In this document: one piece after another, positions 12,988-50,715 of the stretch
How the letters are laid out: each line of letters starts with the position of its first letter
Numbering within the stretch: the first letter of the stretch is position 1
Origin: Verrucomicrobiia bacterium
Lineage (GTDB): Bacteria; Verrucomicrobiota; Verrucomicrobiia; Limisphaerales; DASXHY01
Length of the DNA: 64,000 nucleotides
Reading direction: 5' to 3'
Assembly: GCA_035629175.1 (NCBI GenBank)
Contig: DASPIL010000076.1
Location: forward strand, 1-64,000
The notes under the pieces: generated by a model
The model's database searches: none
The model's input: the letters and a program-made list of their open reading frames with translations, nothing else
Told to the model about the DNA's origin: nothing
Made by a program: the position numbers and the translations under genes

Positions 12988-12995
12988 GACAGTGT

Positions 12996-13721
12996 TTATT
13001 CCGTTTTTCCCGGCTGTTGAATAAGAAACGCATCCAGTTCAGCAAGGCCCGCGGGCGAACCGATTTCATAAAAGCGCTCCGCAACCTCGTAACCCGCCAG
13101 TTGACGACTGGCAACCAGCGCCGACATCACCTCAGCGAGGTCAAATTGCTCGCCTGGCGCATACGCCTCGAAAATAGAGGCCTTGAACAAACTCAGGCCG
13201 TAATCGATGTGATGCATTTCAGGGACCTTGTTCTTCTTGTCGTAAACCGCGATCCGATTGTCGCGAAAGACCACATTGCTCGTGTCGTAACGTCCTTCGT
13301 TGCGATACACGGTCATGCAACCATCCTTCCAGCTGTCGCGCCAGAAATCCGCCACTGCGTGATAATCAACGGGAAGATAGGAATCCCCGTACAACACGAA
13401 GAACTCAGATCCAAGTTTGGGAAGCGCCTGGCGCAGGGCTCCTCCCGTTCCCAGCAGAACAGGTCCGTCAAAGGAGTAGTCGAGTGTAATGCCGAACTGG
13501 GAACCATTCCCAAAATCGCGTTGGATCATTTCTCCCAGATGCCCCACGCACAACACTGCGCGGCGAATGCCGCGTTCGTGCAACAGTTCCAGTTGGTGGG
13601 CCAGGAAGGGACGCCCCGCAACAGACACCAGGGATTTCGGAATTTTCTCGGTAATCGGACGCAACCGGGTTGCGAGTCCGCCAGCAAGGATGGCGACGGG
13701 CATGTCGAGCGGCGCAGTCAT
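12996..13721 (-). CDS. sugar-1-phosphate nucleotidyltransferase (HddC-like)
   Basis: Catalyses NTP + sugar 1-phosphate to NDP-sugar + PPi. Residues 8-31 carry the pyrophosphorylase signature AILAGGLATRLRPIT...KIPKSL. LLGTGGALRQA and FVLYGDSYLP follow, the latter supplying the metal-binding Asp, with YEIGSPAGLAELDAFL at the C-terminus. About 241 aa is typical of the short HddC/RfbF-type enzymes. Its start overlaps the stop of the heptose-kinase-like gene (ATGA at 13718-13721). Together with HddA-, GmhA- and GmhB-like genes it is most simply D-glycero-alpha-D-manno-heptose 1-phosphate guanylyltransferase. The nucleotide used cannot be read from the sequence. Confidence 0.85.
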   Translation of the reverse strand: MTAPLDMPVAILAGGLATRLRPITEKIPKSLVSVAGRPFLAHQLELLHERGIRRAVLCVGHLGEMIQRDFGNGSQFGITLDYSFDGPVLLGTGGALRQALPKLGSEFFVLYGDSYLPVDYHAVADFWRDSWKDGCMTVYRNEGRYDTSNVVFRDNRIAVYDKKNKVPEMHHIDYGLSLFKASIFEAYAPGEQFDLAEVMSALVASRQLAGYEVAERFYEIGSPAGLAELDAFLIQQPGKTE

Positions 13722-14698
13722 GAATTAATCAGCTTGGTGCCTTCGAAGTCGAATCGAAAGCGCACTTCCTTCAGCCCAGCCTGGCGCATCGCATGTCGCA
13801 GCCGTGTTTTGTCATCGGCGTAGAACATCAGGAACCCGCCTCCGCCTGCGCCGATCAACTTCCCTCCGAGCGCGCCGTTCGCCATGGCGAGATCGTACCA
13901 CTCATTGATCTTCGGATTGCTCATGCCGCCCGACCGCTGCATCTTGCGCTGCCAATGGACATCCATCAACCGCGCAAATGCATGCAGGTTTCCGCCTTCC
14001 AGCGCGCTTTGGCTTTGGAATCCGAGTTCCTTGACGAAATGAAGATTCTCAATCATCGAGGCATCCGCAGCTTTGCTCTTCTGGTCCTGCTCCTTGAGAA
14101 TAGCGGATGCCGATCGCGAGTAGCCTGTGAAAAAGAGCAGGAGGTTGTCCTCGAGGTTGTACCGCGTTTCCTCCGAAAGCTTCAAAGGCCAGGCTTCGAC
14201 CTTGCCGCCAGGATGAAATCGAAAGCAGGTGATGCCGCCAAACGCAGCAATGTATTGATCCTGTTTGCCGATCGGTTCCTTCAGGCGATTCAACTCGATG
14301 TCGCACGCCTGTTCAGCGAGTTCGGCGGGATGAACAAGATTGCGCTTGTACGTGTGGAGCGCCTTGAGAAGCGCGGTGGTGAAACTTCCTGAAGATCCGA
14401 GGCCTGTTCCTGCGGGAATGTCTGCCATCGATGTGAGTTCAAGCGATTCGCCCGAAAGACCGACGAGATCGAAGGCTTCGCGGATGATCGGATGCTCCAG
14501 CACTGCTGCGTGCGCCACGCGTTCGAGTTTCGAATACTTGACGATGAGATCGGGAACGAAGGTCTCGTGCAGCGTGATGTAGACGTATTTGTCGATGGCG
14601 GCGGCGATCAGAAAGCCGGAATGTTGCTCGTAATACGAAGGCAGGTCGGTGCCGCCGCCGCCAAGGCTGATGCGAAGGGGAGAGCGGGAGAGGATCAT
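13718..14698 (-). CDS. GHMP kinase, D-glycero-D-manno-heptose 7-phosphate kinase-like (HddA)
   Basis: An ATP-dependent small-molecule kinase of about 326 aa. The N-terminus MILSRSPLRISLGGGGTDLPSYY and the ATP loop IPAGTGLGSSGSFTTALLKAL (the GLGSS motif) are both typical of the HddA/Fkp-like heptokinase group. LNRLKEPIGKQDQYIAAFGG and the C-terminal GGKLIGAGGGGFLMFY complete the GHMP motifs. The start at 14698 is fixed by the conserved N-terminus and overlaps the stop of the preceding Gfo/Idh gene (ATGA). Known family members phosphorylate heptose 7-phosphate at O1 for GDP-heptose synthesis. A second paralogue lies at 47916-49013. Confidence 0.87.
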   Translation of the reverse strand: MILSRSPLRISLGGGGTDLPSYYEQHSGFLIAAAIDKYVYITLHETFVPDLIVKYSKLERVAHAAVLEHPIIREAFDLVGLSGESLELTSMADIPAGTGLGSSGSFTTALLKALHTYKRNLVHPAELAEQACDIELNRLKEPIGKQDQYIAAFGGITCFRFHPGGKVEAWPLKLSEETRYNLEDNLLLFFTGYSRSASAILKEQDQKSKAADASMIENLHFVKELGFQSQSALEGGNLHAFARLMDVHWQRKMQRSGGMSNPKINEWYDLAMANGALGGKLIGAGGGGFLMFYADDKTRLRHAMRQAGLKEVRFRFDFEGTKLINS

Positions 14699-15672
14699 AC
14701 GTAAATGGCTTCGACAACGCGCAGAGCCGCCTTCGCTTCCTTGATGCCAGGAACAGGCGTTCGACCGAGGCGTATGTCTTCGAAAAATTCCTGCATTTCG
14801 AGCTTCCACGACTCGTCGCCACGCGGAAATTCCCAGATCGTCGTTTCAGGGGGACCCATCTGCGGCAGCATCTTGTAATAGGTCAGGCGCTCGACGCCGT
14901 AGCTTCCGCCCAACCCTTCCCAGTGCAGCTTCCCGTCGCGACCGTAAATTTCCAGGCTGAAGAGGTTCTTCCACTCACTGCAGCTCACGTGCAGCCAGGC
15001 AGTGTTACCCGCCGCGTTGCGAAGGTTCAGGAATGCGTTGTCATCCACAGGCATGTCCCAGAAATACGTCGTCGCGTGGCCGTTGACCTGCGTAAGCTCG
15101 CCGAGAAAAATCCCGGCCAGATCGATCAGGTGAACGCCCTGGTCGATCAATTCGCCGCCGCCTGAAAGTTTTGGATCAGCCCGCCACTCCCTATCGTAGC
15201 CGACGCGGCCGCCGTGCCCGTACCGTCCGCGAACAAACATCATCGAGCCGAGCACGCCGCTCCGAAAAAGTTCCAACGCCTTGAGAGCGGCGGGATGATA
15301 ACGGTGATTGTAGCCAACGCGTACTTGAACGCGCTTTCGCGTCGCGATGGATTCCAGGCGTTCCAATTCGGAAACGCGGATTGCGCCAGGCTTTTCAACG
15401 AGCACGTGTTTGCCCGCTTCGGCCGCCAGGCATGCGATCTCGGATAACGATGAGTTCAACGTCGCGATCAGCACAGCATCCACGCCGGGCGAAGTCACGG
15501 CATCCGATACAGATTGGGTTGCGACGCATTCCGGCGTCTGCGCCGCAAGCTTCCGCGCGCGCTCAAGGTTCAGGTCGCACGCGACCGAGACACAGCCAGG
15601 CGGCAGGTTGTTGAGGCGCTTCTGGCCGATGAGGCCGCAGCCGATCAATGCAACGCGAACAGGACAGCTCAT
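14695..15672 (-). CDS. Gfo/Idh/MocA family sugar oxidoreductase
   Basis: An NAD(P)-dependent dehydrogenase, likely acting on a sugar or nucleotide sugar of the surrounding pathway. It opens with the Rossmann fingerprint VRVALIGCGLIGQKRL, then has HVLVEKPGAIRVSELERL (the family's EKP motif, near residue 92), and the second-domain strand region LSGGGELIDQGVHLIDLAGIF carrying the conserved His. Length is about 325 aa, normal. It lies in the operon with an ATGA overlap downstream and 1 bp after the SDR stop. Members in surface-glycan clusters often make 3-keto or amino sugars; the actual substrate is unknown. Confidence 0.87.
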   Translation of the reverse strand: MSCPVRVALIGCGLIGQKRLNNLPPGCVSVACDLNLERARKLAAQTPECVATQSVSDAVTSPGVDAVLIATLNSSLSEIACLAAEAGKHVLVEKPGAIRVSELERLESIATRKRVQVRVGYNHRYHPAALKALELFRSGVLGSMMFVRGRYGHGGRVGYDREWRADPKLSGGGELIDQGVHLIDLAGIFLGELTQVNGHATTYFWDMPVDDNAFLNLRNAAGNTAWLHVSCSEWKNLFSLEIYGRDGKLHWEGLGGSYGVERLTYYKMLPQMGPPETTIWEFPRGDESWKLEMQEFFEDIRLGRTPVPGIKEAKAALRVVEAIYV

Positions 15673-15673
15673 T

Positions 15674-16537
15674 TCAGTTCCACTTCTTGCCGCGATCCTC
15701 GGGGACGATGCGTCGCAGGCAGTAAATGTCAGATGCTTTCAATTCATCGCGATGCTCATGAAGCGCCGCCCACGGATCCCATTGGGCGCTGATCAGTTTG
15801 CCCGTGATGCCGATGCTCTCCTGGCTTCCAAGGTACACGGCGAGATCGGCGCCGAGGCTCAAAGGCGTGGCACCTTCCGCCTTCCATTTTTTATTCTTGT
15901 CGAAGAACGCCTGGCCCACTTTTTCCGGGCCGGCAGCAATCACTTCTTCGACGAGGCGCGTTGCGAGAGCGCCTGGCGCGATGGCGTTGACATCGACGTT
16001 GAACGCGCGCAGTTCCTCGGCGAGCGTTTCCATGAGACGCACCACGGCGGCCTTTGAGGCAGCGTAGGAACTGATGTTTGGAAGGGGATTGGTAGCGCCG
16101 CCGCCCGACAACACGACAATCTTGCCCGCGCGCCTTTGCTTGAAATGTGGAATCAAGGCGCGGCAGGGAAGAAGGACGCCGAACAAGTTGATGTCGATCG
16201 CCCGCCGCCATTCGTCGATCGAGACCGATTCAGTCGGACCCATCGGGCCGTATACACCGGCGTTGTTAACCAGGATATCGATGTTGCCGAGTTCGTTGAG
16301 CGCGAAGCTGGCGAGATCGTTGACCTGAACTTCAGAGGAGACGTCGCAGGCGCGCGCGAGGACCTTGCTCCGAGCGGGAGCGAGGCGTCGCAATTGATCC
16401 CGCGAGCCGAGCAGCGTCTTTTCATCGCGCGAGCAAATCACGACGTTCGCGCCTTCACGGACGTAAGCTTCGGCAATCGCAAGGCCAAGACCCTGGCTGC
16501 CGCCTGTGATGAGCGCGTTGCGCTGGGAGAGTTTCAT
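15674..16537 (-). CDS. short-chain dehydrogenase/reductase (SDR)
   Basis: A classical SDR of about 287 aa using NAD(P). The cofactor motif is ALITGGSQGLGLAIAEAY near residues 8-25, NNAG occurs in DILVNNAGVYGP, and the catalytic Ser and Tyr-Lys pair are in LSGGGATNP...SSYAASKAAVVR (YxxxK). It sits between the UGDH-like gene (4-nt overlap) and the Gfo/Idh gene, so it probably reduces or oxidises a sugar intermediate of the same pathway. The family is broad; the substrate cannot be assigned. Confidence 0.87.
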   Translation of the reverse strand: MKLSQRNALITGGSQGLGLAIAEAYVREGANVVICSRDEKTLLGSRDQLRRLAPARSKVLARACDVSSEVQVNDLASFALNELGNIDILVNNAGVYGPMGPTESVSIDEWRRAIDINLFGVLLPCRALIPHFKQRRAGKIVVLSGGGATNPLPNISSYAASKAAVVRLMETLAEELRAFNVDVNAIAPGALATRLVEEVIAAGPEKVGQAFFDKNKKWKAEGATPLSLGADLAVYLGSQESIGITGKLISAQWDPWAALHEHRDELKASDIYCLRRIVPEDRGKKWN

Positions 16538-17847
16538 AGGGCGCGTCCGACGGAAAGATGCTCAACGCCCGGCATATCTTTCAATTCCTTTTCCAGAAAG
16601 CGATTGGCGTCCACGACGATCGGGGAGCGCATTCGCGACACGAGTTTTGGCCAGGGCGCATCGCGGAACTCAGGCCACTCGGTGCACAGCACAACGGCAT
16701 CGGCGTCATTCACGGCCTCCTCGACATTGGCGAGCACGGCAACCTGCTCCAAACCCGCGGCGGACGTTTTCACCAAAGGATCAAACGCGCGCACCCTGGC
16801 GCCCGCGCGCAACAGCTGATGGCACAGCTCGACTGCGGCGCTGCGGCGCAGTGTGTCGGTGCCCGGTTTGTAGGTGAGGCCCAGCACCGTGATTGTTTTC
16901 GCGCGTAATTCGCCGAGCCGCATCTGCAGCCGCCGAAACATCCATCCGCGGTGCAGGTCGTTGCTTTGCTTGATTGCGGGAATGAGTGACAGGGGTTCGT
17001 TCCGCGACCGCCCTAATTTCGTAAGCGTGACGACGTCGCGAGCGAGAGTGCCGCCCGCGAACGGACCGCCTGGGCCAAGATAAGCGCGGAGCCCGATGCG
17101 CGGTTCGCTTTTCAATCCAGCCGAGACTTCTTTCGCATCCGCGCCGGTCAGTTCGCAAAGCCGCGCGATCTCGTTGATGAAAGTGACCGAAACGGCAAGG
17201 AATGAATTGAGAGCATGCTTCACCATCTCGGCCGATTCGGTTCGCATGAAGAGAATCTGCGAAGTGAACGGAGCGAACAGCTCTTGCAGCAGTTCACGGC
17301 GTTGTTCGCTTCGAGTTCCGATCACGACCCGATCCGCCTTTTCAAACGATTCAATCGCCTTCCCCAGGCGCAGGTTTTCGGGCGAACAGGCAAACTGAAA
17401 ATCGGGAAACTCACGTTCCAGCGCGGCGCACGTGCCGACAGGCAGTTGCGCGGAAATCAAGACGAGGGTCCCGGGAGCTGTCGAGGCCAGCGCACACCGC
17501 AATTGCGCCAGGACAGCATCCACCTCCGATTCGTCATCCTCATTCACGGGTGTGTCCGCGCAGAGCCACACGACATCGGCTTCAGCGCAAGCCGAGGCTG
17601 GATCTGTAGTGAAACTTAATCTCTTTGATTGCAGCCCGGCGGCGAGCAGTTCGTTCAGGCCGGACTCGAACAGCGGGGCCTTGCCTTCACTGAGACGCGC
17701 GATGTTGGCGGTATCATCGTCGAGTCCGGCCACACGGAAATGTCTCGCACAGCATGCGGCAGTGACCGTTCCGAGATGCCATAACCCGACGACAACGATC
17801 GACAAGGAACCGCTGCCACGATCGTTCGGTTCACGCTCGCTTTTCAT
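16534..17847 (-). CDS. UDP-glucose/GDP-mannose dehydrogenase-like protein lacking the catalytic Cys
   Basis: A three-domain nucleotide-sugar dehydrogenase homologue of 437 aa. The N-terminal Rossmann motif is VVVGLWHLGTVTAACCA (residues 18-34). VWLCADTPVNEDD and ACSPENLRLG follow, then the central helix AEMVKHALNSFLAVSVTFINE with the conserved Lys and Asn. The active-site segment normally reading FGGxCLPKD is FAGGTLARD here: the nucleophilic Cys is Thr (about residue 267), and Pro-Lys is Ala-Arg. The C-terminal UDP-binding domain (TVLGLTYKPGTDTLRRS) is intact. Without the Cys the usual second oxidation to a uronic acid should fail, so it may stop at the aldehyde or catalyse another reaction. 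It overlaps the upstream epimerase gene by 17 bp and the SDR by 4. Confidence 0.85.
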   Translation of the reverse strand: MKSEREPNDRGSGSLSIVVVGLWHLGTVTAACCARHFRVAGLDDDTANIARLSEGKAPLFESGLNELLAAGLQSKRLSFTTDPASACAEADVVWLCADTPVNEDDESEVDAVLAQLRCALASTAPGTLVLISAQLPVGTCAALEREFPDFQFACSPENLRLGKAIESFEKADRVVIGTRSEQRRELLQELFAPFTSQILFMRTESAEMVKHALNSFLAVSVTFINEIARLCELTGADAKEVSAGLKSEPRIGLRAYLGPGGPFAGGTLARDVVTLTKLGRSRNEPLSLIPAIKQSNDLHRGWMFRRLQMRLGELRAKTITVLGLTYKPGTDTLRRSAAVELCHQLLRAGARVRAFDPLVKTSAAGLEQVAVLANVEEAVNDADAVVLCTEWPEFRDAPWPKLVSRMRSPIVVDANRFLEKELKDMPGVEHLSVGRAL

Positions 17848-18805
17848 ATACCCAGCGGTTCTGTTGCAGCCATTCCAATGTGCGGATGATTCCCTGCTCG
17901 ATCGTCAGCGACGGCTTCCAGCCTGTGGCCCGAATTTTTTTCGTTTCGAGGAAAATGAAGGGATTGTCCCCGACCCAGCCCCGATTCCCGCCCGTATATT
18001 CCAGTTGTGGTTTGAGGTTCAAAGCGGCGCAAATGTGGCCAATCGAGTCATTCACCTGGACATATTCGTCTGTGCCCAGGTTGTAGATCTCGACACGATG
18101 CCGCGCCTTCAATGCTGTCCCTGAGTTGATCACGTGCAACATCGCGGACAGGCAATCAGCGATGTAGAGATAGCTTTTCCGTTGCGTGCCGTCGCCGAGC
18201 ACTTTCAATTGATCAGGATGCTCCACCAGCTGGCGGTAGAAATCGAACACATGGCCGTGCGTGTAGCGTTCGCCGAGAATGGAGACGAAACGGAAGATGT
18301 AGCCTTCGAAACCAAAGCCTTCGCAGTACGATTGAATCAGTCCTTCGCCCGCGACCTTTGAGCTGGCGTATAGCGATGTCTGAATGGGAAACGGCGCGTC
18401 CTCGGGCGTGGGAATGACAGCCGCCTCGCCATAGACGCTTCCGGTTGAGCTGAAGGCGATTCGTTTGATGCCGTTGGCGCGCATTGCCTCGAGCACATTG
18501 AAAGTCGCAATCGTGTTTTGCTCGAGATCCTTGCGCGGATGATTAAGGCCGAACCGCACGTCGGCATTCGCGGCGAGGTGGAACACGGTGTCGCAACCCG
18601 CCATCCCGGCCTCGAGGGCAGGCAGGTCCAGATTGTCACCGCGGACGAGTTGGAACGCGGGATTCTTTTCCGCGTTAATGAGGAACTCCGGCTGGCCGGT
18701 GGAGAAGTTATCCCAGCCGACAACCTGTTTCCCGTCTGCGAGCAGGCGATCCACCAGCGAACTGCCGATGAAGCCGGCAGCGCCGGTCACGAAGATGCGT
18801 TCCAT
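17831..18805 (-). CDS. NAD-dependent sugar epimerase/dehydratase (extended SDR)
   Basis: A nucleotide-sugar epimerase or dehydratase related to GalE/WbpP. The N-terminus MERIFVTGAAGFIGSSLVDRLL gives the TGxxGxxG cofactor motif. VFHLAANADV, FSSTGSVYGEA, and the catalytic tyrosine and lysine in SLYASSKVAGEGL follow. Length is about 324 aa. The ATG at 18805 is chosen at the conserved motif; an ATG at 18826 would add seven residues, and neither has a good Shine-Dalgarno sequence. It is the first gene of the minus-strand sugar-nucleotide operon and diverges from the glycosyltransferase at 19012 across a roughly 200-bp gap likely to contain both promoters. Confidence 0.87.
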   Translation of the reverse strand: MERIFVTGAAGFIGSSLVDRLLADGKQVVGWDNFSTGQPEFLINAEKNPAFQLVRGDNLDLPALEAGMAGCDTVFHLAANADVRFGLNHPRKDLEQNTIATFNVLEAMRANGIKRIAFSSTGSVYGEAAVIPTPEDAPFPIQTSLYASSKVAGEGLIQSYCEGFGFEGYIFRFVSILGERYTHGHVFDFYRQLVEHPDQLKVLGDGTQRKSYLYIADCLSAMLHVINSGTALKARHRVEIYNLGTDEYVQVNDSIGHICAALNLKPQLEYTGGNRGWVGDNPFIFLETKKIRATGWKPSLTIEQGIIRTLEWLQQNRWVYEKRA

Positions 18806-19011
18806 GTTGCGCGCGAGTTTAGCCATGTCGACCCGTGCTGCCAGTACTTTTGAAGAGGAGCGCGGCGTTAACGCGGCTTGAGTCTTGGGACTGGCGGGCG
18901 CGTGAAGAGGTTCAAGGACGAGCGCATGCTGAACGCCGAGGCGGGCTGAAGCCACGCACCCTGCAACACCGCGAGCTTGCTGCGTCTTCGCGAAACCGGT
19001 TTCATGGGATC

Positions 19012-20046
19012 GTGAGCCATTCGTCTGTGATTCCACAACCCGCTCAGCCGGGACGCGTCAGCGTGATCATCCCGACGCTGAACGTTGAGGGTTTGCTTGA
19101 GAACTGCCTCGGATCGATCGCGCGACAGACATATCCGCAGGGCCAGATTGAAGTGCTGCTGGCCGACGCGCATTCGAAGGATCGCACGCGAGAAATCGCT
19201 GCCAAGTTTAAAGCCGTCGTGCTCGATGACAACGGGCGCAACATGGAAGAAGGCAAGCGCATGGCGTTGGGGCGCGCGACAGGCGAGTTCATCGTGTTCA
19301 TGGATGCCGACAACGAACTGACCCATCCCGATTATCTTGAACTCGCAGTCCGCGGGTTGCGTGAGCATCCACAAGCGCTGGGCGTGGAGGCTTATTATCC
19401 AGCGTCTCGTCGCATGACGTCGTTCTGCGCCTACATCACGCAGTTGCTGCACATCAGCGATCCCGTGTGCTGGTTCATGAGCCAGGAACCGCAGCAGGTT
19501 GCGCGGCATGACGATGTCGAGCGCTGGCGGCTGCCTGGAGAAAGTGCGGCATATCCCTTGGGCGCGAACGGTTTTGTATTTCGGCGTGCGGACCTGGATT
19601 CTGTGGGCGCGGGCGAACATTTCCAGGACACGCATGTCGCCGTGCGGCTGATGCAACAGGGCAAGCGTGAGTGGCTGCGCATCGCGGGCCGCGGTGTGCA
19701 TCATTATTACGTGCCGACGTGGTGGGGCTTCGTCAAAAAGCGGCGACGCTCGACCGTACATTTCCTGAACGTTCAAGAGGAAGCCCCATTGAACTGGATG
19801 CGGCAGCAACCGCGGCATCCCCTGTGGCTGGCCGCGCTTTACTGCGGGACGATTGTTGGTCCGCTCTGGCATTCACTCGTTCGCCTCGCTCGCGATCGCG
19901 ACGTTCGATGGCTTTGGCATGCGCCCGCATGCTTCGGCGCCGTGATTGGAAATGTGTGGGGAATCATAACTTACAAACTCCATCGCCGGGACGCGAAGCT
20001 CATCGCCAAGCTTCAGGTGAAACAAACCATAAAAAAGGAATCGTGA
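19012..20046 (+). CDS. GT2-family glycosyltransferase, first gene of the Ynb-like operon
   Basis: A GT-A fold transferase of about 344 aa. RVSVIIPTLNVEGLLENCLGSI starts the nucleotide-binding domain; IEVLLADAHSKDRT follows, the metal-binding motif is FIVFMDADNEL, and acceptor-side residues lie in GANGFVFRRADLD. Hydrophobic stretches near residues 265-285 and 305-320 could be membrane-associated. The start is uncertain: I use the GTG at 19012, because the long upstream open frame lacks conserved character. The stop overlaps the GTG of the next gene (GTGA, 20043-20046), so it is coupled to a CDP-alcohol phosphatidyltransferase. A role in glycosylating the lipid made by this operon is inferred from coupling only. 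Confidence 0.8.
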   Translation: MSHSSVIPQPAQPGRVSVIIPTLNVEGLLENCLGSIARQTYPQGQIEVLLADAHSKDRTREIAAKFKAVVLDDNGRNMEEGKRMALGRATGEFIVFMDADNELTHPDYLELAVRGLREHPQALGVEAYYPASRRMTSFCAYITQLLHISDPVCWFMSQEPQQVARHDDVERWRLPGESAAYPLGANGFVFRRADLDSVGAGEHFQDTHVAVRLMQQGKREWLRIAGRGVHHYYVPTWWGFVKKRRRSTVHFLNVQEEAPLNWMRQQPRHPLWLAALYCGTIVGPLWHSLVRLARDRDVRWLWHAPACFGAVIGNVWGIITYKLHRRDAKLIAKLQVKQTIKKES

Positions 20047-35805: not shown

Positions 35806-36914
35806 TCAGAAAACCTTTTTGCCCTCGCACAGGTTGATGAGTTCGGACAGCGCCAGCACCTGTGCCCGCCTGCCCGCGCCTTCGCGGACGGTGTGAAGAA
35901 TGCCATTGGTCTTCAGCGTGCCGAGCAGGCTGGCGACCATGGGCGGGCTGGGCATGCCAGGGTGTTTGGTGGCCTCGCTGCCTCGAAACACGGGCCGTTC
36001 AAACATGAAGTCGAGCAAGGGGACGGCAAACTGGGAATGGGTCAAGTCGAGCGTTTGCTTTTTGAGGCGTTCGTAAAGGTCTTGGATGGCCCGGGCTTTC
36101 TTGGTGTTGGCCTCGGCTTGCACGGATACGCCTTCCAAGAAGAAAGCAGCCCAGCGTGTCCAACTGCCAGGCTCACCCAAGGCCCGCAGACGGGCGATGT
36201 AATCATCCCGCCGCGACTCAAAAAATGCGGACAGGTAGAAGCAGGGCCGGCTCAGGATTTTTTTCTCGTAAAGAAAGAGCGGGATGACCATGCGGCCGAT
36301 GCGCCCGTTGCCGTCAATGAACGGATGGAGGATTTCAAACTGGGCGTGCAGGAGCGCCAGTTGGATGAGCGCGTCCGGCGCATCGGAATGCCAGTAGGCC
36401 TCCCAGCGGTTGAGGTGTTCCTGCAACTGAAGCGGCGACGGCGGCACGAAGGCGGCGTCCTCGATGGGGCTGCCCGGCTTGCGGATCCAGTTTTGAATGG
36501 TGCGAAAGCGGCCACGGCCCTTGTTGTGTCCGCGCACGCTGTCCATGAGAACTTCATGGAGTTTGAGCATTGAGTTGAGGCAGAACGGGCGTTCACGCAA
36601 GAGACTTTCGGAAACGCGCAGGGCTTTCCGATAATTCATGATTTCATGGATGTCCTCGCGGCGGGACGGCTCGGTCGGGGCTTCGCCGGCTTCAAACTTC
36701 AGAACGTCCTCGAAATCGGCCTGTGTGCCCTCAATTTTGGAGGACAGCACCGCTTCCTGTGTCGTGATGGGAGAAAGCAGGACATCGGGTTGGGGATGCC
36801 GTAAAACAAGCCTTCCAGAGTGGCAATGGCGCGATTGGCCTTACCGACCAGCGGCATCAACGCCACAAGATCAAGGTCTTTTGGTGGAAGTTGCTCCGGC
36901 TCAAACGGGTTCAT
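35806..36914 (-). pseudogene. Fic-domain AMPylator gene with a frameshift
   Basis: Fic proteins transfer AMP from ATP to target hydroxyls. The C-terminal frame (35806-36750) has the Fic core HPFIDGNGRIGR, the upstream SSKIEGT inhibitory helix motif ([ST]xxxE[GN], class II) and a winged-helix-like C-terminus. The true N-terminus lies in another frame: MNPFEPEQLPPKDLDLVAL...EGLFYGIPNP from 36914. The two frames join near 36787-36789 if one base is restored, where a run of three G on the plus strand would need one more; restoring it gives PNPDVLLSPITTQEAVLSSKIEGT. The start, core and end of the family are all present, so this is a recent loss or a sequencing error. Confidence 0.85.
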
Positions 36915-37360: not shown

Positions 37361-39946
37361 TCACAGCGGTCTGCCCGCGGCTTCCTTACTCTCATGTGTC
37401 AGTTCAGTTTCCCGTCGTGGATAATCTCGATCGGCCGGGTTCGGTCCGTTGTGTGGAAAGAGGCCCATTTGCTTCGCCAATTCGTCGAGGAAGACAGTGA
37501 TGATGCTTTGAAGGCTGCGTTGATCCTGTCGCAGCCACCACACGAAGGCGGGCAAGACGAGCAACGTCAGCCAGGCCCAAGGGCTGCCGATCCAGCCAAT
37601 GATCAAGAGTGCGAATCCCAAAAGCGCGCTGAAAGCAATACGTGCCGACAACGACCAGGTTGGGCGCAGCCGGCAACGAATCAATTGCCGCTGCTTCGGA
37701 TGTTCCTCCGCAACGGTTGCGACCTGGAGATGACTCCACCGCGTGCCGTAAATCTCAACGTCATAGTCGTTCCAACCGGTATCTGTGCGGTTTGGCCAGC
37801 CTTTTTTGTCCAAGCGGTCAAGCATCGCCTTTACAAAATCAATCCTCTCAATCCGCTGTTCCGCCCAATACTGCACTTCGCCCAGCGGTCTCGGACTTCC
37901 CCGAAGCGCGAGCGAATCGATGGACTGCTGGGATTCGAGCCGCAGCGGCGTGACTGCGAGCCGTCCTTGATATCGGGCTGCCCCGCGGACGAGCGGCTGC
38001 AGAAGATGCATCAACGCGACGAGCGGACGCGACCACCAGCGCCGCTGTTCGCGAGGCACGACGGCCTGGTACGCGGCGAGCGCGCAGACACTGAGCGTGA
38101 TCAACATGCTCGCCAGCGCCAGCGGAATGAAATAGTGCGAGACGGCCGACATCACCCAAAGAGGGAACGTGATCAACAAGTGATACTCCAGCGACGTGCA
38201 GAAGATCAGTGCCGTGCCGCTGCCAGACGAATAAAGCCTTTGAAAGCCAGCGCTCCCGAATAGCCCGTGGTAGATCACTGGCCGTTGCAAATCGAGCCCC
38301 CCTTTCGCTGTGCCGTATATGCGCCCATGCCAAATGCTTCCACCCAGGGCATTGAAATTCTCCGGGTGTTTCCGGACGAGCATGGCCTCGGCTTCTCCAT
38401 ATCCATGCTGCTGCTTGAGATAGGCTTGAACAGTCGATCGTCGATAATGCCAGACAAACGCCGCAGGACTGAACCCGATTCGATAGCCCGCCTGTTGCAA
38501 ACGCCAGCAAATGTCGACGTCGTCTCCCGCTTTTGTATAGGTCGGATCGAATCCCCCAATCTCTTCGAGGGCGCTGCGATAGAAGGCCATATTGCAGCCG
38601 GGAATGTGTTCCGCCTGCCTGTCGGTTAGCATCACGTGGGCGGGCCCGCCCGGTGATGCCATGACCGCTGCGGCCACCGCCGAGTCTTCTGGCGGGAGGA
38701 GGTTTGGTCCGCCCGCGCCGATGAATTCTCCATCCTGCAACGTGGCTGCAAGGTGGTAGAGCCAGTCCTCGTCCGCGCGGCAATCCGAGTCGGTGAACGC
38801 AACGATTTCCCCGCTCGCCGCCGAAATCCCCGTATTGCGAGCAATCGACAACCCTAAATTCCTGGGATGGCGGATGGTTCGGGCATGAGGGAATTCGGCC
38901 GCAATTTTCGGCGTGGTGTCGCTGGATCCGTCGTCAACAAGGATGACTTCGTAGTCTGGGTAATTGAGGCGCTGCAACGATTGCAGGCAGTTCCGCAGCG
39001 TGCGATCGCCGTTGTAGCTTGCGACCACGACTGAAATCCGCGGATAACGGCGGAGCGGAAAACAAGGTGCCGCGTTGAACTGCCTGAGAACGGTATAGAA
39101 CGAATCTTTAGCCTGGCGATCGGCGGTCACCAATCCCATCTGCCAGTCGTCCACCATCCGGCCTCCGCGAAACCATTCGTCCGTGTAAGTGAAGACAACC
39201 GTTCCCGCCAGGCCCGCCCGGAATGATTCCTCGATTTGCCAGGCGAGCATCTCTGATTTCCTGCCTTCGCCTTCACGGAGCGAGTCAGCGCCGAATTCAC
39301 CGAGCACGAGCGGCTTGGCCTCGGCAATCATCTGCAGCCGGGCCATGTAATTCCGAAATGGCTGTTCGTTATGCAGATAAACGTTGAAGCAGACGAAATC
39401 AACGCTGGCAGGATGAACGAACTCGGTGGGTGGAAAGTTGGAGTACGTGCAAAGGCAGCCTGGATCGACACGCTTGGCTTCCGCGATGAGTTCATCGATC
39501 CATTCCGACACCGCCCGCGCGCCGGTCCACCGAACGATATCGGCGGGGATCTCGTTTCCAACGCTGAATGCGAACACCGCGGGATGGCGTCCGCAGGCGA
39601 GCACCGTTTTCCGTACGATGTCGCGTGCCTGCTCGCGCCGCTCCTGGGAATCGATGCACAGGTGCCGGTTCCAGGGAATATCTACAAAAATCTTCAGGCT
39701 GCGTTCATGTGCGAGTTCCAGCAGCCATCGCGGAGGGAGGTCGTAAACGCGGATGACGTTGGCGCCGAGTTGAACGATTTGGGAGAGATCCGCGGCGGTT
39801 TGTTCGGTTGAAGCAAAAGGCTGTCCCTGCGCGTTGGGCGGGAACGGACCGTACGCGACTCCCTTGACGAAAAACTTTTTTTCGCCCAGTCGGAAGAACT
39901 TGCCGTCCACGGTGACGCGTGGCTGGGCTGGAACCGCGGATGCCAT
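37361..39946 (-). CDS. glycoside hydrolase (TIM barrel) fused to GT2 glycosyltransferase
   Basis: An 861-aa two-enzyme protein. Residues 1-300 form a GH2/GH5-like barrel: GVAYGPFPPNAQGQPF, GANVIRVYDLPPRWLLELA, FSVGNEIPADIV with the acid/base Glu, and LVLGEFGADSLREGEG with the nucleophile Glu. From about 310 a GT2 domain follows: RISVVVASYNGDRTLRNCL, VILVDDGSSDT, FTDSDCRADEDWL, and GGFDPTYTKAGDDVDICWRL. Hydrophobic segments near 600-645 and 765-790 suggest membrane anchoring. It probably makes or remodels an exported glucan-like polymer, but this is inferred from the fusion. The ATG at 39946 opens the barrel. Confidence 0.87.
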   Translation of the reverse strand: MASAVPAQPRVTVDGKFFRLGEKKFFVKGVAYGPFPPNAQGQPFASTEQTAADLSQIVQLGANVIRVYDLPPRWLLELAHERSLKIFVDIPWNRHLCIDSQERREQARDIVRKTVLACGRHPAVFAFSVGNEIPADIVRWTGARAVSEWIDELIAEAKRVDPGCLCTYSNFPPTEFVHPASVDFVCFNVYLHNEQPFRNYMARLQMIAEAKPLVLGEFGADSLREGEGRKSEMLAWQIEESFRAGLAGTVVFTYTDEWFRGGRMVDDWQMGLVTADRQAKDSFYTVLRQFNAAPCFPLRRYPRISVVVASYNGDRTLRNCLQSLQRLNYPDYEVILVDDGSSDTTPKIAAEFPHARTIRHPRNLGLSIARNTGISAASGEIVAFTDSDCRADEDWLYHLAATLQDGEFIGAGGPNLLPPEDSAVAAAVMASPGGPAHVMLTDRQAEHIPGCNMAFYRSALEEIGGFDPTYTKAGDDVDICWRLQQAGYRIGFSPAAFVWHYRRSTVQAYLKQQHGYGEAEAMLVRKHPENFNALGGSIWHGRIYGTAKGGLDLQRPVIYHGLFGSAGFQRLYSSGSGTALIFCTSLEYHLLITFPLWVMSAVSHYFIPLALASMLITLSVCALAAYQAVVPREQRRWWSRPLVALMHLLQPLVRGAARYQGRLAVTPLRLESQQSIDSLALRGSPRPLGEVQYWAEQRIERIDFVKAMLDRLDKKGWPNRTDTGWNDYDVEIYGTRWSHLQVATVAEEHPKQRQLIRCRLRPTWSLSARIAFSALLGFALLIIGWIGSPWAWLTLLVLPAFVWWLRQDQRSLQSIITVFLDELAKQMGLFPHNGPNPADRDYPRRETELTHESKEAAGRPL

Positions 39947-40132: not shown

Positions 40133-40245
40133 TCCACCCTCCGAAGTAGCTGCTACGGAGGACGGGCGATACCAAAGACCCGGAGGTCTGCGGGTAACGA
40201 CCTTTGCCGATTGAACTTCGAACGGCCAGCGGTGAATCTGACCGC

Positions 40246-45352: not shown

Positions 45353-46153
45353 TTATCCTCTCCCGAGATTCGGCGCTCGATGTTCCCGAAGAAAGGTTTC
45401 GATGGCGTAAACGCTCGAGTTCACGGGGAACAAGGCGGCGAGCTTTTCGTTGCTCGCTTCGACGACACGGGGAATGGCATCGGCGGGGAGCATTGCGAGA
45501 TTCAAATCACGCTGCGCAATGGCAGCAACCTCGCGCATGCTGATCAGTCCAGTGCCACAGACGTTAAAGATCTGCTGTCGGAAGCCAGTCTGAACCAGCG
45601 CCCAAGCAACCTGCGCGACTTCGTCAGTGAGCATGAATTGATACCGGGAATCGGGATGAATTCGCAGCGGCTGTCCGTTGATGATGTCGAACACAGGATT
45701 TTTCCTAAGTCCCGGCCCCACCATGCCGGCGAGTCGGACGATTAGCCATGACGAGGCATAATGCTGGACGAGTTGTTCCGCGAGGTGCTTGTGAAATCCA
45801 TATCGCGAGGAGCTGCGCACGTCGATCGGGGCATCCTCACGCGTCGTGCCCGGTGAGGAAACGTCGTTGTAGACGTCCACGCTGGAAATGTGGAGTTGAA
45901 GGCCGGCTGTGAATTTTTGGAGCGAAAGAAGGCGGTGTTGAACCGACGCCGCGAACTCACCTGCGGGATCCTGGTCCGCGAGAAACTTTCTGGAATTGCA
46001 CGCCGCCTCGATAACCACGTCGCTGTGCGCAGCAGGCAGCGCGTCGAAGTTCTGCCGTGTGACGCATGTGAGTTCGATATCAGGCTGCCTGCCGAGCAGG
46101 CGGGCGAAAGCGGACCCGACGAGCCCATTCGCCCCAATGATCGTTACACGCAT
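45353..46153 (-). CDS. NAD(P)-dependent epimerase/dehydratase, short
   Basis: An extended-SDR-like protein of about 266 aa. MRVTIIGANGLVGSAFARLLG is the cofactor motif; SVDVYNDVSSP marks the Ser region, and the catalytic YxxxK is in SSRYGFHKHLAEQLV. The C-terminal substrate domain is short. The ATG at 46153 is at the conserved motif, 2 bp after the preceding gene's stop. It resembles NAD-dependent reductases of dTDP/GDP-sugar pathways; substrate unknown. Confidence 0.78.
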   Translation of the reverse strand: MRVTIIGANGLVGSAFARLLGRQPDIELTCVTRQNFDALPAAHSDVVIEAACNSRKFLADQDPAGEFAASVQHRLLSLQKFTAGLQLHISSVDVYNDVSSPGTTREDAPIDVRSSSRYGFHKHLAEQLVQHYASSWLIVRLAGMVGPGLRKNPVFDIINGQPLRIHPDSRYQFMLTDEVAQVAWALVQTGFRQQIFNVCGTGLISMREVAAIAQRDLNLAMLPADAIPRVVEASNEKLAALFPVNSSVYAIETFLREHRAPNLGRG

Positions 46154-46155
46154 CG

Positions 46156-47100
46156 CTACAGGCGGATCTCCGCGGGGTTGCTGAGAAACCACGCGATCGT
46201 TTTTTCCAGACCGCTTCGAAGGGTCGTGGGACAATCACATCCGAGGAGCGTTTTCATTCGTGTCACATCAAACCCCTTGAACATTTGTCCGTCAGGCTTG
46301 GAGCTGTCCCAGACGACTTTGCCGTCATACCCGACAAGTTCAGCAACGGTCTCTGTCAGCTCGCGGATGGACACTGGCCGGCCGGAGGAAATGTTGATGA
46401 TTTCGCTGCCGCTGTATTCCCCGGCGGCTTTCAAAATGACTCTGCACGCATCTTCGACGTAAACGAAATCGCGTGTCGGACGGCCCGTGCCCCACGCAAC
46501 GATCTCCTTGCGCCCGGTTTTCTTCGCCTCCACGTATTTCCGGATCAGCGCGGGAATGACGTGGGAGTTGTTGAGATCGAAATTGTCGAAGGGGCCGTAA
46601 AGATTGCCGGGCACAAGCACAATGGCATCGAATTGGTGCTGGCGGCGATAAGCTTCCGCCTGGATGGCGCTCATCGCCTTGGCCAGGGAATATGGGGCGC
46701 TTTCAGCTTGCGGCATTCCGTTGAAGAGCTCGGTTTCCTTGATTGGGCTGGGCGCGTGAGCGGGATAGCTGCAGCCGCCCATGAGCGTGACATATTTTCG
46801 CGCGCCTGCCCGCCACGACTCGTGGAGCATCACCGTTCCCATCAGCAGGTTCTCATAACAAAAATCGGCAGGTCGCGCTTTGTTGGCGCCGATCCCTCCA
46901 ATCAACCCGGCCAAATGGAAGACAACGTCCGGCTTGGTTTCTTCGAGCATGCGGCGCACTGCCGCCTGTTCGAGAAGGTTGAACGCGGAGCGCGACGGCG
47001 TTACGGGCTGCAAACCGCGATCACGCATCAGTTGCACGACGTTGCGTCCAACGAAACCGCTGGCTCCCGTCACGAGAATCCTGGCTTTGTCCAAATCCAT
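46156..47100 (-). CDS. GDP-L-fucose synthase-like NAD-dependent epimerase/reductase
   Basis: An SDR of the Fcl/WcaG group, about 314 aa, which in known members epimerises and reduces GDP-4-keto-6-deoxymannose. ILVTGASGFVGRNVVQLM, then VVFHLAGLIGGIGANKARPADF, MGGCSYPAHAPSPI with the Cys/Ser pair of Fcl, and SAPYSLAKAMSAIQAEAYR (YxxxK) fit closely, as does NLYGPFDNFDLNNSHVIPALI. Since a GDP-heptose route is present, it may act on a GDP-heptose derivative instead. It lies in a row of same-strand genes. Confidence 0.83.
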   Translation of the reverse strand: MDLDKARILVTGASGFVGRNVVQLMRDRGLQPVTPSRSAFNLLEQAAVRRMLEETKPDVVFHLAGLIGGIGANKARPADFCYENLLMGTVMLHESWRAGARKYVTLMGGCSYPAHAPSPIKETELFNGMPQAESAPYSLAKAMSAIQAEAYRRQHQFDAIVLVPGNLYGPFDNFDLNNSHVIPALIRKYVEAKKTGRKEIVAWGTGRPTRDFVYVEDACRVILKAAGEYSGSEIINISSGRPVSIRELTETVAELVGYDGKVVWDSSKPDGQMFKGFDVTRMKTLLGCDCPTTLRSGLEKTIAWFLSNPAEIRL

Positions 47101-47103
47101 AAA

Positions 47104-47919
47104 CTAAAAGGCACTTCCGGTCACAGCATAGCGCAGTACGCGTTGAGGGAAACTTCCAATCCAAACATCGCTCAGCCGGACGAGCGTGGATTCATGCGGA
47201 ACCGATGGGGCCTTCGCGCGATCGTTTGTCACCACCAGGTGAAAACTGCCGGGCGCAAAATATTTCGGGCCGCGGATGTATTGCGTATTGAAGTAGCGGA
47301 CATACGCCTCGTCGTGCTGCAAACCGACTGATCGGAAGAAGTCGATCCACCACTGGGCCGGCTTAACGCTCTGATGCAAATTCACGCCGTTCACGAAATC
47401 GTCCTGGGACGCGATACTCATGATCCACAGCCCGCCAGGCCGCAGGTGTTTCTTCACGTTTGCGGCGACCGCCGGGAGATCCCGCTCGTGGATGTGTTCC
47501 ATGACTTCCCATGAAGTCACGACGTCGAACTGGATCAATCGCTTCCCACCCTCGAACTCGCCGAGGATTTCGAACGGCGCAGTGATATCCGCCGTGAACA
47601 GGTATTCGGGAATCGTGCGCCATTCCGCGCGGCGAAGTCGCTTTGAGAAGTCACTCCCTTCCAGACCGACTGCAACACAGCCGTCGTCGAGGCAGTCTTT
47701 TACGAATCCACCCCCGGAGCAGCCGAGGTCTGCGATCCAGAGAGGGCCCCTTTGTTCGCCGAACAGTTTATAAAGCTTCTGATTGAAGCGGCGATTGCGG
47801 CTGTTGTCGCGGCGAGTGCCCCATGGCACGAGGTGGTCTGGCGATTCGTAAGCGATGGGCCGGGTGGCGTTGACATTGACGGATCGCAGGCGAGCCCAGT
47901 TCTGGTCCACTTCATTCAT
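47104..47919 (-). CDS. class I SAM-dependent methyltransferase
   Basis: A methyltransferase of about 271 aa. WIADLGCSGGGFVKDCLDDG is motif I (near residues 65-84), FDVVTSWEVMEHIHERDLP covers the acidic motif, and LRPGGLWIMSIASQDDFV is motif III. It could methylate a sugar or a carried lipid in the surface-glycan pathway. Its start overlaps the stop of the GHMP kinase gene (ATGA, 47916-47919) and it is followed closely by the GDP-fucose-synthase-like gene. Confidence 0.85.
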   Translation of the reverse strand: MNEVDQNWARLRSVNVNATRPIAYESPDHLVPWGTRRDNSRNRRFNQKLYKLFGEQRGPLWIADLGCSGGGFVKDCLDDGCVAVGLEGSDFSKRLRRAEWRTIPEYLFTADITAPFEILGEFEGGKRLIQFDVVTSWEVMEHIHERDLPAVAANVKKHLRPGGLWIMSIASQDDFVNGVNLHQSVKPAQWWIDFFRSVGLQHDEAYVRYFNTQYIRGPKYFAPGSFHLVVTNDRAKAPSVPHESTLVRLSDVWIGSFPQRVLRYAVTGSAF

Positions 47920-49013
47920 TCGTCAGAGGGAGGCATGTGTGGTGCGGCAGCATCGGCATTCGATTCACGAAACGCATCGAGCTTTTGTGAAGCCCTTGCT
48001 TTGTCGTGCTTTGTAAAATCCTCTTCGTGATCGAAAAAGATAATCTGGCTGCCCGCGAATTCGAACTTGAACGGCACGTGGATGAGCGACTCGAATTCGC
48101 TTCGCACCGCAGCCTGGCGATCCGGCGGGACAAACAGAAGGAGGAAGCCGCCCGCGCCCGCGCCGAGCAGTTTTCCACCGATGGCCCCTGCGGCCCGCCC
48201 TCTGTCGTAGAGTCCGTCAATCTGAGGGTTCGAAACCTTGTGGCTCAACTCGCGTTTCGCGAGCCAGTTGTCGTGCAACAGTTCCCCGAACATCCGCAAA
48301 TCCTGCCGGCTGTTCAGAATCTCGGCTCCCTGTTCCACGTATTCCCGCATACGGTTCAGGAGATTCGCGCGTTGGTCCACGGCATCGGCAGTCCCGTAAC
48401 TGGACGCCACTTCCGAAGCGGTTCTCTTGATGCCCGTGTAGAACAGCATCAGATTGGAGTTCAGCTCGCGCACACGCGACTGCGACAGGGTCATTGGCTG
48501 TACTGAAAAATCGCCGTTCTGAAGGAAGTTGATGCGATTTAACCCTCCATAAGCGGCGCAGACTTGATCCTGCGATCCGACGGTTTCCTTCAAGCGATCC
48601 TGCTCGACGTGTATGCCTTCCCGGGCGAGCTGTTTCTTTCCCGCGACGCGGCCCTTGAGGGCATAGAGGGCATGAAGGAGGCCAACCGTGAATGCGGAGC
48701 TGGATCCCATTCCGCTCCGTCCCGGGAGATCGGCAGCATGATGGATTTCAATCCCGCGATCGACTTTTAGAAACCGCAGGGATTCCCGTACTGACGGGTG
48801 AACGATTTCGTCCACGCTCTGGCAATGTTCGATGCGTGAGTAGACGACTCGGATGCGATGTTCGAGAAATGGGGGGAGATAGCGGCACGTGAGGTAGCAG
48901 TACTTGTTGATCGTTGCTGCGAGCACGGCTCCGCCATGCTGGCGATACCACGCGGGGTAGTCTGTCCCGCCGCCAAAAAACGAGATGCGAAACGGAGTTC
49001 TGCTGATGATCAT
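47916..49013 (-). CDS. GHMP kinase, heptose 7-phosphate kinase-like (second copy)
   Basis: A paralogue of the kinase at 13718-14698, about 365 aa. MIISRTPFRISFFGGGTDYPAWY, DLPGRSGMGSSSAFTVGLLHAL (ATP loop), DRLKETVGSQDQVCAAYGGLN and GAIGGKLLGAGAGGFLLLF are all present. The start at 49013 is at the conserved motif and overlaps the stop of the nucleotidyltransferase gene (ATGA). Coupling to a nucleotidyltransferase repeats the first cluster's arrangement, so a second sugar, possibly another heptose, is phosphorylated and then activated. Confidence 0.87.
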   Translation of the reverse strand: MIISRTPFRISFFGGGTDYPAWYRQHGGAVLAATINKYCYLTCRYLPPFLEHRIRVVYSRIEHCQSVDEIVHPSVRESLRFLKVDRGIEIHHAADLPGRSGMGSSSAFTVGLLHALYALKGRVAGKKQLAREGIHVEQDRLKETVGSQDQVCAAYGGLNRINFLQNGDFSVQPMTLSQSRVRELNSNLMLFYTGIKRTASEVASSYGTADAVDQRANLLNRMREYVEQGAEILNSRQDLRMFGELLHDNWLAKRELSHKVSNPQIDGLYDRGRAAGAIGGKLLGAGAGGFLLLFVPPDRQAAVRSEFESLIHVPFKFEFAGSQIIFFDHEEDFTKHDKARASQKLDAFRESNADAAAPHMPPSDE

Positions 49014-49759
49014 GTCATTGCGTTCCCGAACCATTCCGCTTGTTGGCGCACGAACGCTTCGGCCAGGGGCAATGATTCGGGTGTGCCTATATCTAAAAAC
49101 GGAGCGTCCGTCACGCAGACTTTCAATCGTGTCCCCCGCTCGGCCAGCATCGGAAACACGTCCGTTTCGAAACTGAGGGGACGTTTGACGGGAAAGGTCC
49201 GTATGAGCGAATCGCGAAACAAGTAAACCCCGGCGTTGATGATTCCCGCGCCTGGGCGCTTCTCCAGGAACCCGGCGAGTTCGCCCGCAGCCGTTTGGGC
49301 AAGTGTTCCATATCGGCTCGCTTCAGTCATGGGAACCCCCAGGATTGCGCCGTCGATTCCCGAATCGTTCAGGGAATCGACAAGCGGTTGCAGCGGTGCC
49401 AGCGCCAGGGAATCCCCGTTCATTACCAGCCAGGCGCGAGTCTCCTGCGTTGCAGCAGCAGCGGCATTTAAAAATCCACCCGCGGTTCCGAGCGGAACAT
49501 TTTCGAGCGCGCATTCGATCTTCATGGCAGCCACGGGGCATGTGGCGAAATGTTGTTCCACAGTTTCTGCCAGATAGCCTGTCGATAACACTGCGTTGCG
49601 CACGCCCTGATCCGCGAGGTAGCGAAGAATCCATTCTATGAACGGTTTTCCGAAAACGGGCGCCATGGGCTTTGGAATCTCGCGGAGCAGATGCTGTATG
49701 CGCGTGCCGAAACCGCCCGCGAGAACGACAGCAGTAATCTGGTCAAGGTGCGGGCGCAT
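49010..49759 (-). CDS. sugar-1-phosphate nucleotidyltransferase (second copy)
   Basis: A nucleotidyltransferase of about 249 aa. ITAVVLAGGFGTRIQHLLREI, then PKPMAPVFGKPFIEW (signature), PLGTAGGFLNAAAA and WLVMNGDSLAL (metal Asp) match the RfbA/HddC-type family. AGIINAGVYLFRDSLI and FLDIGTPESLPLAEAF follow. The start at 49759 is taken at MRPHLDQITAV, since the upstream open frame is not conserved. It overlaps the second GHMP kinase gene and follows the epimerase gene by 23 bp. Confidence 0.86.
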   Translation of the reverse strand: MRPHLDQITAVVLAGGFGTRIQHLLREIPKPMAPVFGKPFIEWILRYLADQGVRNAVLSTGYLAETVEQHFATCPVAAMKIECALENVPLGTAGGFLNAAAAATQETRAWLVMNGDSLALAPLQPLVDSLNDSGIDGAILGVPMTEASRYGTLAQTAAGELAGFLEKRPGAGIINAGVYLFRDSLIRTFPVKRPLSFETDVFPMLAERGTRLKVCVTDAPFLDIGTPESLPLAEAFVRQQAEWFGNAMT

Positions 49760-49782
49760 GAGCGATCCCAGTGCGCTCAGCT

Positions 49783-50715
49783 TCAAACGTTCGAATAGAT
49801 CGTATTCCGGAGAATCGTGTAGGCCTTGATCAATTCCTGGATTCCGCGATCCAGGTTCCATTCGGTTCGGAAGCCCGTTGCCAGGATGCGGGCGTTCGAC
49901 ACGATGTAATCGCGCTTGTCTGGATCCTCCCCGATGGGCGCCTCGAGATAGACCAGCTTGGGCAGATGTTTCTTGATGACTTCGCACAGCTCGAGCTTGG
50001 ACAGGTTGGCCTCCTCCAGCCCGACGTTGTAAGGCTTGCCCTTCATTTTTTCGAAGTTCGCCATCCCATGCTGGAAAGCGCGGACCACGTCGCGGATGTG
50101 GATGTAGTTCCGTTTGAAATGCCCTTCAAAAATCATGATCGCGCGGTCGTTCACGGCGCGGTAAACGAAGTCATTGACGAGAAGGTCGAGGCGCATGCGC
50201 GGCGCGACGCCGAACACTGTGGCGAGCCGGAAACTCATGCTGTTCTCACGCTTCAAAACCGCTTCCTCCGCTTTGACCTTGGTGACACCGTAGGTGGATA
50301 TTGGGCGCAACGGCGTTTCTTCGGTGCAAAACTTTCCTTTCTCACCAATGCCATAGCCGCTGTTGGTGACCGGCATGATCATCCATTGAGCGGGGCTTGC
50401 GAGGCGGCACAGCATCTCCACCGCTTCCTGGTTGATCGTACGCGTGCCAATCTGGTCCGTGTTGCAAAGGGGAACGCCGACCAACGCTGCCAGTGGGATG
50501 ATCAGGTCAGCCTTGGCAACCAGCGGCTTGATGAGATTCTCGTCGCGGCAGTCACCTCGGATGACTTCGAACTTCTCGTATTGGCAGCAGTCGAGCAGGC
50601 TGTTTTGTGCAAAATAGAAGTTGTCGACGACCGTCACCGCGTGCCCGTCTGCCAGCAGTGTCGGAGCCAGGACAGAACCGATGTAACCCGCGCCCCCTGT
50701 GATCAGAATTCTCAT
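49783..50715 (-). CDS. NAD-dependent nucleotide-sugar epimerase
   Basis: A GalE-like extended SDR of about 310 aa. MRILITGGAGYIGSVLAPTLL, DLIIPLAALVGVPLC, and STYGVTKVKAEEAVLKREN (YxxxK) are the family motifs. VFGVAPRMRLDLLVNDFVYRA and YIHIRDVVRAFQHGM follow, and the Cys/Thr-rich PLCNTDQIGTRTIN region resembles SDRs annotated as dTDP-4-dehydro or UDP-glucose epimerases in LPS clusters. It is first of the tight minus-strand run 49783 to 45353. Substrate unknown. Confidence 0.86.
   Translation of the reverse strand: MRILITGGAGYIGSVLAPTLLADGHAVTVVDNFYFAQNSLLDCCQYEKFEVIRGDCRDENLIKPLVAKADLIIPLAALVGVPLCNTDQIGTRTINQEAVEMLCRLASPAQWMIMPVTNSGYGIGEKGKFCTEETPLRPISTYGVTKVKAEEAVLKRENSMSFRLATVFGVAPRMRLDLLVNDFVYRAVNDRAIMIFEGHFKRNYIHIRDVVRAFQHGMANFEKMKGKPYNVGLEEANLSKLELCEVIKKHLPKLVYLEAPIGEDPDKRDYIVSNARILATGFRTEWNLDRGIQELIKAYTILRNTIYSNV

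What the first reader, a model, noticed from the sequence alone, without database searches (positions are those of the whole stretch)
37361..39946. Hydrolase and glycosyltransferase in one protein
Seen: an N-terminal TIM-barrel with two Glu in the expected places (GNEIP and GEFGAD) joined to a GT2 domain with DxD and other motifs and possible membrane segments. Inference: a polymer is made and cut or transferred by the same protein, perhaps as with curdlan/NdvB-like beta-glucan enzymes, which would be an unusual single-chain arrangement.
Basis: partly seen in the sequence, partly recalled or inferred. Interest (0 to 1): 0.6.

Follow-up and report, generated by a model that had tools for sequence, protein, structure and literature searches.

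The report
Glucanase-like domain fused to sugar transferase
A gene found widely in one class of Verrucomicrobiota bacteria encodes a single protein that carries both a sugar-cutting domain (resembling enzymes that cut beta-1,3-glucan) and a sugar-adding domain, both apparently inside the cell; both active sites are kept in every relative checked, but what it makes is not known.

Summary
Window 39946-37361 (minus strand) encodes one 861-aa protein: an N-terminal clan GH-A TIM barrel (residues ~10-290, Glu132 and Glu217), a GT2 domain (~302-570) and a C-terminal part with two hydrophobic hairpins. It is not a chance or assembly fusion: the same single-chain order occurs in 97/136 good genomes of the order and in other families of the class. 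All 107 homologues aligned keep both GH Glu and all GT2 catalytic Asp, and both domains are under strong purifying selection. By profile and fold the nearest solved GH relative is GH157 (endo-beta-1,3-glucanase), ahead of GH2, GH158 and GH72. The NdvB analogy is only partly right. No signal peptide or membrane segment lies before or between the domains, one clade has lost all hydrophobic segments yet keeps both active sites, and the GT2 lacks the QxxRW processivity motif (QQxxYG instead; nearest curated family MftF, below cut-off). Best reading: a cytoplasmic, mostly membrane-associated enzyme that builds a short beta-linked oligosaccharide on an unknown acceptor, and trims or rearranges it with its own retaining GH domain. 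That works in principle like the cytoplasmic cyclic-glucan synthase Cgs but is made of unrelated modules. Substrates and activity are untested.

The parts
37361..39946 (-). whole gene, 861 aa, GH-A TIM barrel + GT2 + C-terminal membrane/accessory part
   Evidence: fused in 107 homologues
39077..39919 (-). GH157-like TIM-barrel domain, residues 10-290
   Evidence: Pfam; profile vs PDB: GH157 9fz9 E 2.7e-23; Foldseek TMq 0.82 to 9fz9
39551..39553 (-). Glu132, presumed acid/base (after invariant Asn131, the NE motif of clan GH-A)
   Evidence: invariant 107/107
39296..39298 (-). Glu217, presumed nucleophile
   Evidence: invariant 107/107; aligned with E224A position of LaGH157 mutant 9g4n
38237..39043 (-). 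GT2 domain, residues 302-570
   Evidence: Pfam and NCBIfam; AF2
38930..38935 (-). DD motif D338-D339
   Evidence: invariant
38783..38791 (-). DxD motif D386-S-D388
   Evidence: invariant
38519..38524 (-). ED-like catalytic base position D475-D476
   Evidence: invariant
38396..38413 (-). QQxxYG 512-517, in the place of QxxRW
   Evidence: alignment with PgaC (KQRLRW) and MftF; Q512, Q513, Y516 invariant
38075..38209 (-). first hydrophobic hairpin, residues 580-624
   Evidence: hydropathy; helices in AF2 model; missing in L107-L114
37655..37879 (-). small soluble alpha/beta domain between the hairpins, residues 690-764, no Pfam or PDB sequence match
   Evidence: counterpart kept in the soluble member L108
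37469..37651 (-). second hydrophobic helical hairpin, residues 766-826

Best explanation
A cytoplasmic bifunctional enzyme, peripherally or C-terminally anchored to the inner face of the inner membrane in most lineages. The GT2 domain (inverting, nucleotide-sugar dependent, non-processive) adds one or a few beta-linked sugars, most likely glucose, to an acceptor that is not identified (lipid, protein or small molecule). The N-terminal retaining GH157-like domain, on the same side of the membrane and in the same chain, then acts on that nascent oligosaccharide: trimming it to length or moving a segment by transglycosylation (length control, branching or ring closure). Shown: domain order, conservation, active-site residues, absence of a membrane segment between the domains, purifying selection. 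Inferred: cytoplasmic location, linkage/sugar, that the GH acts on the GT product, and trimming versus transglycosylation.
For: Single chain in 27/289 genomes across the phylum (all one class, 17 genera) and 97/136 good genomes of the order (66/77 genera). In the phylum sample every GH-domain match inside that class is a fusion; only four other-class genomes have weak stand-alone relatives, and the ones read out have an N-terminal signal/lipoprotein-like segment that the fused form lacks. Both Glu and all GT2 motifs 107/107. Median dN/dS 0.067 (GH) and 0.029 (GT). GH-GT distance correlation 0.94 over all pairs, 0.65 within the order. No segment with TM hydropathy in residues 1-575 and only 10 open residues upstream of the start. 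L107-L114 have no hydrophobic segment at all but intact active sites and form one clade in both domain trees. GT2 lacks QxxRW; nearest curated family is MftF (205 bits, cut-off 280), an oligoglycosylating GT2 that adds up to nine beta-1,4-glucoses (PMC7491314). GH157 and GH72 relatives act on beta-1,3-glucan (PMC10229575).
Against: No activity is known for any member. No conserved gene neighbour that would name a substrate (best: a thymidylate-synthase-like gene beside 21 of 81). GH157 similarity is distant (about 19% identity) and the GH domain lacks the C-terminal part of GH157, so the beta-1,3-glucan assignment may not carry over. The correlation of domain distances partly reflects shared species history.
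Confidence: 0.45

Rival explanations
1. NdvB/Orphan-like (cyclic) beta-1,3-glucan synthase: a processive GT2 makes a polymer that passes the membrane to a GH domain which cuts and cyclises it.
For: Same two activities in one chain; GH domain nearest to beta-1,3-glucan enzymes; some membrane segments.
Against: GH17 is not the domain present; no TM between GH and GT; no signal peptide; QxxRW absent; soluble clade L107-L114 (PMC10237404).
Confidence: 0.08
2. The GH domain is a quality-control or salvage glycosidase that removes wrongly added or stalled sugars from the acceptor, or releases the oligosaccharide; the two domains act oppositely rather than in sequence.
For: Both active sites strictly conserved and on the same side; the nearest stand-alone relatives are hydrolases.
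Against: No direct evidence separates hydrolysis from transglycosylation; a futile cycle would need regulation that is not visible.
Confidence: 0.22
3. The GH domain is a carbohydrate-binding scaffold that has lost catalysis and positions the acceptor for the GT2.
For: Lacks the C-terminal part of GH157; faster evolving than the GT2.
Against: Both catalytic Glu, Asn131, Arg66, Asn188, Trp258 invariant in 107/107; omega 0.067.
Confidence: 0.12
4. The two domains act on different substrates and are fused only for co-expression or co-localisation.
For: No shared substrate is demonstrated; no operon context.
Against: Not found apart in close homologues across the class.
Confidence: 0.13

Closest known systems
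Pseudomonas/Bradyrhizobium NdvB-type GH17-GT2 beta-glucan synthases
   Same: One polypeptide with N-terminal TIM-barrel GH and a GT2 domain; beta-1,3-glucan theme.
   Different: GH17 not GH157-like; GH periplasmic and separated from GT2 by TM helices; processive QxxRW-type GT2 (PMC10237404).
Agrobacterium cyclic beta-1,2-glucan synthase Cgs (GT84 + cyclase + GH94)
   Same: Glycosyltransferase and glycan-processing domains in one chain, all on the cytoplasmic side; length control/cyclisation of a nascent glucan (PMC10901819).
   Different: Different GT and GH families, far larger, six TMs; beta-1,2 linkage.
GH157 (LaGH157, BcellWH2_01931)
   Same: Best profile and fold match of the GH domain; equivalent catalytic Glu.
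   Different: GH157 enzymes are stand-alone (cell-surface in Bacteroides) degradative endo-beta-1,3-glucanases of over 500 aa; ~19% identity only.
MftF mycofactocin glycosyltransferase (TIGR03965)
   Same: Closest curated GT2 family; oligoglycosylation without QxxRW.
   Different: No GH domain; the window protein scores below the cut-off; no mycofactocin maturase above cut-off in this genome.

Membership tests
GT2 superfamily | GT-A fold with DD, DxD and general-base Asp motifs | tested here: met
Processive GT2 synthases (cellulose/curdlan/PNAG type) | Q(Q/R)xRW motif | tested here: not met
   QQxxYG-type at that position (Q512, Q513, Y516 107/107); PgaC has KQRLRW
NdvB/Orphan GH17-GT2 | GH17 domain (PF00332) | tested here: not met
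   Pfam hits are GH72/GH2_C, not GH17
NdvB/Orphan GH17-GT2 | GH outside, TM region between GH and GT2 | tested here: not met
   no hydrophobic segment in residues 1-575
Clan GH-A retaining glycosidases | (beta/alpha)8 barrel with N-E acid/base and a second Glu nucleophile | tested here: met
   AF2 pLDDT 94, E132 and E217 invariant, Foldseek hits GH157/GH2/GH72
GH157 | closest sequence/structure family and equivalent catalytic Glu | tested here: met
   E 2.7e-23 against 1e-12 for the next family in PDB; TMq 0.82
GH157 | full-length enzyme of over 500 aa with C-terminal part | tested here: not met
   TMt 0.48; only residues 7-265 match chain 3-280 of 537
GH157 | endo-beta-1,3-glucanase activity | not testable with these tools
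   needs expression and assay
MftF (TIGR03965) | score above curated cut-off | tested here: not met
   204.9 against 280 bits
MftF (TIGR03965) | mycofactocin biosynthesis genes in the genome | tested here: not met
   best MftC match 98 bits against cut-off 265; sub-cut-off matches also ring in all 14 control genomes
Cgs (cyclic beta-1,2-glucan synthase) | GH94 phosphorylase domain | tested here: not met
   not among Pfam hits of 51 members

The most novel reading that the evidence does not exclude
A hitherto undescribed class of cytoplasmic beta-oligosaccharide synthase/remodelling enzyme in Verrucomicrobiota, in which a GH157-type domain was recruited from exported glucanases to the inside of the cell and fused to a non-processive GT2, making a conserved but unknown (perhaps cyclic or branched) beta-glucan-type glycoconjugate.
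Probability: 0.35. Interest if true: 0.6.

Novelty: new variant of a known kind. Interest (0 to 1): 0.42.

Why it matters
Near-core in its order and single-copy in most genomes, yet without any described function that I found, it probably makes a glycan or glycoconjugate that these common soil and freshwater bacteria need. A GH and a GT on the same side of the membrane in one chain allow a direct test of whether a retaining glycosidase domain edits or rearranges the product of a glycosyltransferase beside it. The naturally soluble clade (688-718 aa, no membrane segment) makes that test practical.

Tried and rejected
Chance or assembly fusion: rejected by 107 homologues with the same order. Reading on the + strand: rejected. 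Operon context: 81 neighbourhoods clustered; no universal neighbour. Mycofactocin system: no MftC over cut-off. Fusion in plasmids of other phyla: no record covers 80% of the query; the Novosphingobium hit is a 314-aa GT2 gene on its own, and the Azospirillum hit is a GT protein with no GH family match. Jumping to another phylum through L058 (labelled Omnitrophota) was not possible with the tool. PDB codes 9FZ9, 9G4N and 9G5G are not in the paper library. The own-genome GH17 search gave nothing, but no control rang either, so it is not used as evidence. The C-terminal small domain has no PDB sequence match.

Full report
Observation. The interval 37361-39946 is one ORF on the minus strand, ATG to stop, 861 aa. 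Pfam places GT2 at 305-463 (E 7e-34) and weak but above-threshold GH72 and GH2-barrel matches in the N-terminal third; of 51 aligned homologues all match GT2, 36 GH72 and 34 GH2_C. The AlphaFold2 model is confident (mean pLDDT 86.2, pTM 0.80) and the GH part alone reaches 94.2 / 0.92.

Not chance. A scan of one-per-species genomes gave 80 loci at 55-68% identity (the cap), nearly all labelled Verrucomicrobia or Limisphaerales. In an even sample of the phylum 27 of 289 genomes have it, all in the same class; in the order 97 of 136 good genomes and 66 of 77 genera. Nearly all order-level matches span the whole protein; the remainder are mostly matches at contig ends or pairs of matches that fall in one long frame around an insertion near residue 350. 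When the GH domain alone is searched, every match in that class is again the fusion, and only four genomes of other classes have stand-alone relatives. Those read out have a signal- or lipoprotein-like N-terminus, in contrast to the fusion (judged by eye).

Both active sites are kept. In 107 homologues N131, E132 and E217 (GH), and D338, D339, D386, D388, D475, D476, Q512, Q513 and Y516 (GT2) are invariant. E217 aligns with the position mutated to Ala in the GH157 E224A crystal structure. dN/dS over close pairs has median 0.067 for the GH and 0.029 for the GT2 domain. Pairwise divergence of the two domains correlates at 0.94 overall and 0.65 within the order; shared species history contributes to this.

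What the GH domain is. A profile of the domain finds GH157 from Labilibaculum first in the PDB (E 2.7e-23), well before GH2 enzymes (1e-12), GH158 and GH72 glucanosyltransferases; Foldseek agrees (TMq 0.82). A characterised GH157 cuts linear beta-1,3-glucan and not pustulan (PMC10229575). The link to beta-1,3-glucan is a lead, not a test: identity is about 19% and the C-terminal part of GH157 is missing.

Topology. No segment with TM hydropathy lies in residues 1-575 of the window protein; only 10 open residues precede the start (frame of 871 aa). The GH domain therefore most likely sits with the GT2 in the cytoplasm, where nucleotide sugars are (inference from known GT2 biology). Eight members of one family (L107-L114) have no hydrophobic segment anywhere, form one clade in trees of either domain (support 1.0 and 0.91), and keep both active sites; the one shown in the alignment, L108, also keeps a counterpart of the C-terminal small domain. 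Membrane passage of a product is thus not essential to what the protein does.

What the GT2 does. The QxxRW motif of processive synthases is replaced by QQxxYG. The nearest curated family is MftF, below its cut-off; MftF adds up to nine beta-1,4-glucoses to mycofactocin (PMC7491314), so short oligosaccharides are a sensible expectation. The window genome has no mycofactocin maturase over cut-off, so the acceptor must be another.

Mechanism proposed. The GT2 builds a short beta-linked oligosaccharide and the adjacent retaining GH trims or rearranges it. This resembles in principle Cgs, whose GT, cyclase and GH94 domains all face the cytoplasm (PMC10901819), but the modules are unrelated. NdvB-type GH17-GT2 proteins (PMC10237404; PMC10514313) are the nearest architectural precedent but differ in GH family, GH location and processivity. 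No description of this family was found in the open-access library searched; that library is incomplete.

Limits. No neighbour names a substrate; other bacterial phyla could not be surveyed; no biochemical test was possible. TM calls rest on simple hydropathy plus the AF2 helices.

Noticed in passing
window 40137-40161 (upstream of the gene): Near-palindromic CCTCCGTAGCAGCTACTTCGGAGGG; 11 copies with up to 2 mismatches in the genome against 0 for the reversed control: a dispersed palindromic repeat family.
   Followed up: partly
L107-L114: One family of the class carries a soluble version of the fusion with all hydrophobic segments lost.
   Followed up: yes
related genomes G307, G323, G339, G358, G371, G380, G389, G398, G399, G407, G413: Homologues in which the match is broken at about residue 350 of the GT2 but stays in one long open frame, suggesting a lineage-specific insertion.
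   Followed up: no
window 35806-36750 (minus): Fic/DOC family protein with Fic_N domain next downstream of the gene.
   Followed up: no
L058: Full-length 58%-identical fusion in a contig labelled Candidatus Omnitrophota: transfer, or a mislabelled bin.
   Followed up: no
loci L009-L088: A thymidylate-synthase-like gene lies close downstream, same strand, in 21 of 81 neighbourhoods and a DHFR-like gene in 8, but not in the window (names judged from the sequence).
   Followed up: no
window 12215-19036 and 45353-50715: Two nucleotide-sugar/heptose-type gene groups (GHMP kinases, nucleotidyltransferases, NAD-dependent epimerases) in the same window, seen in the ORF list only.
   Followed up: no
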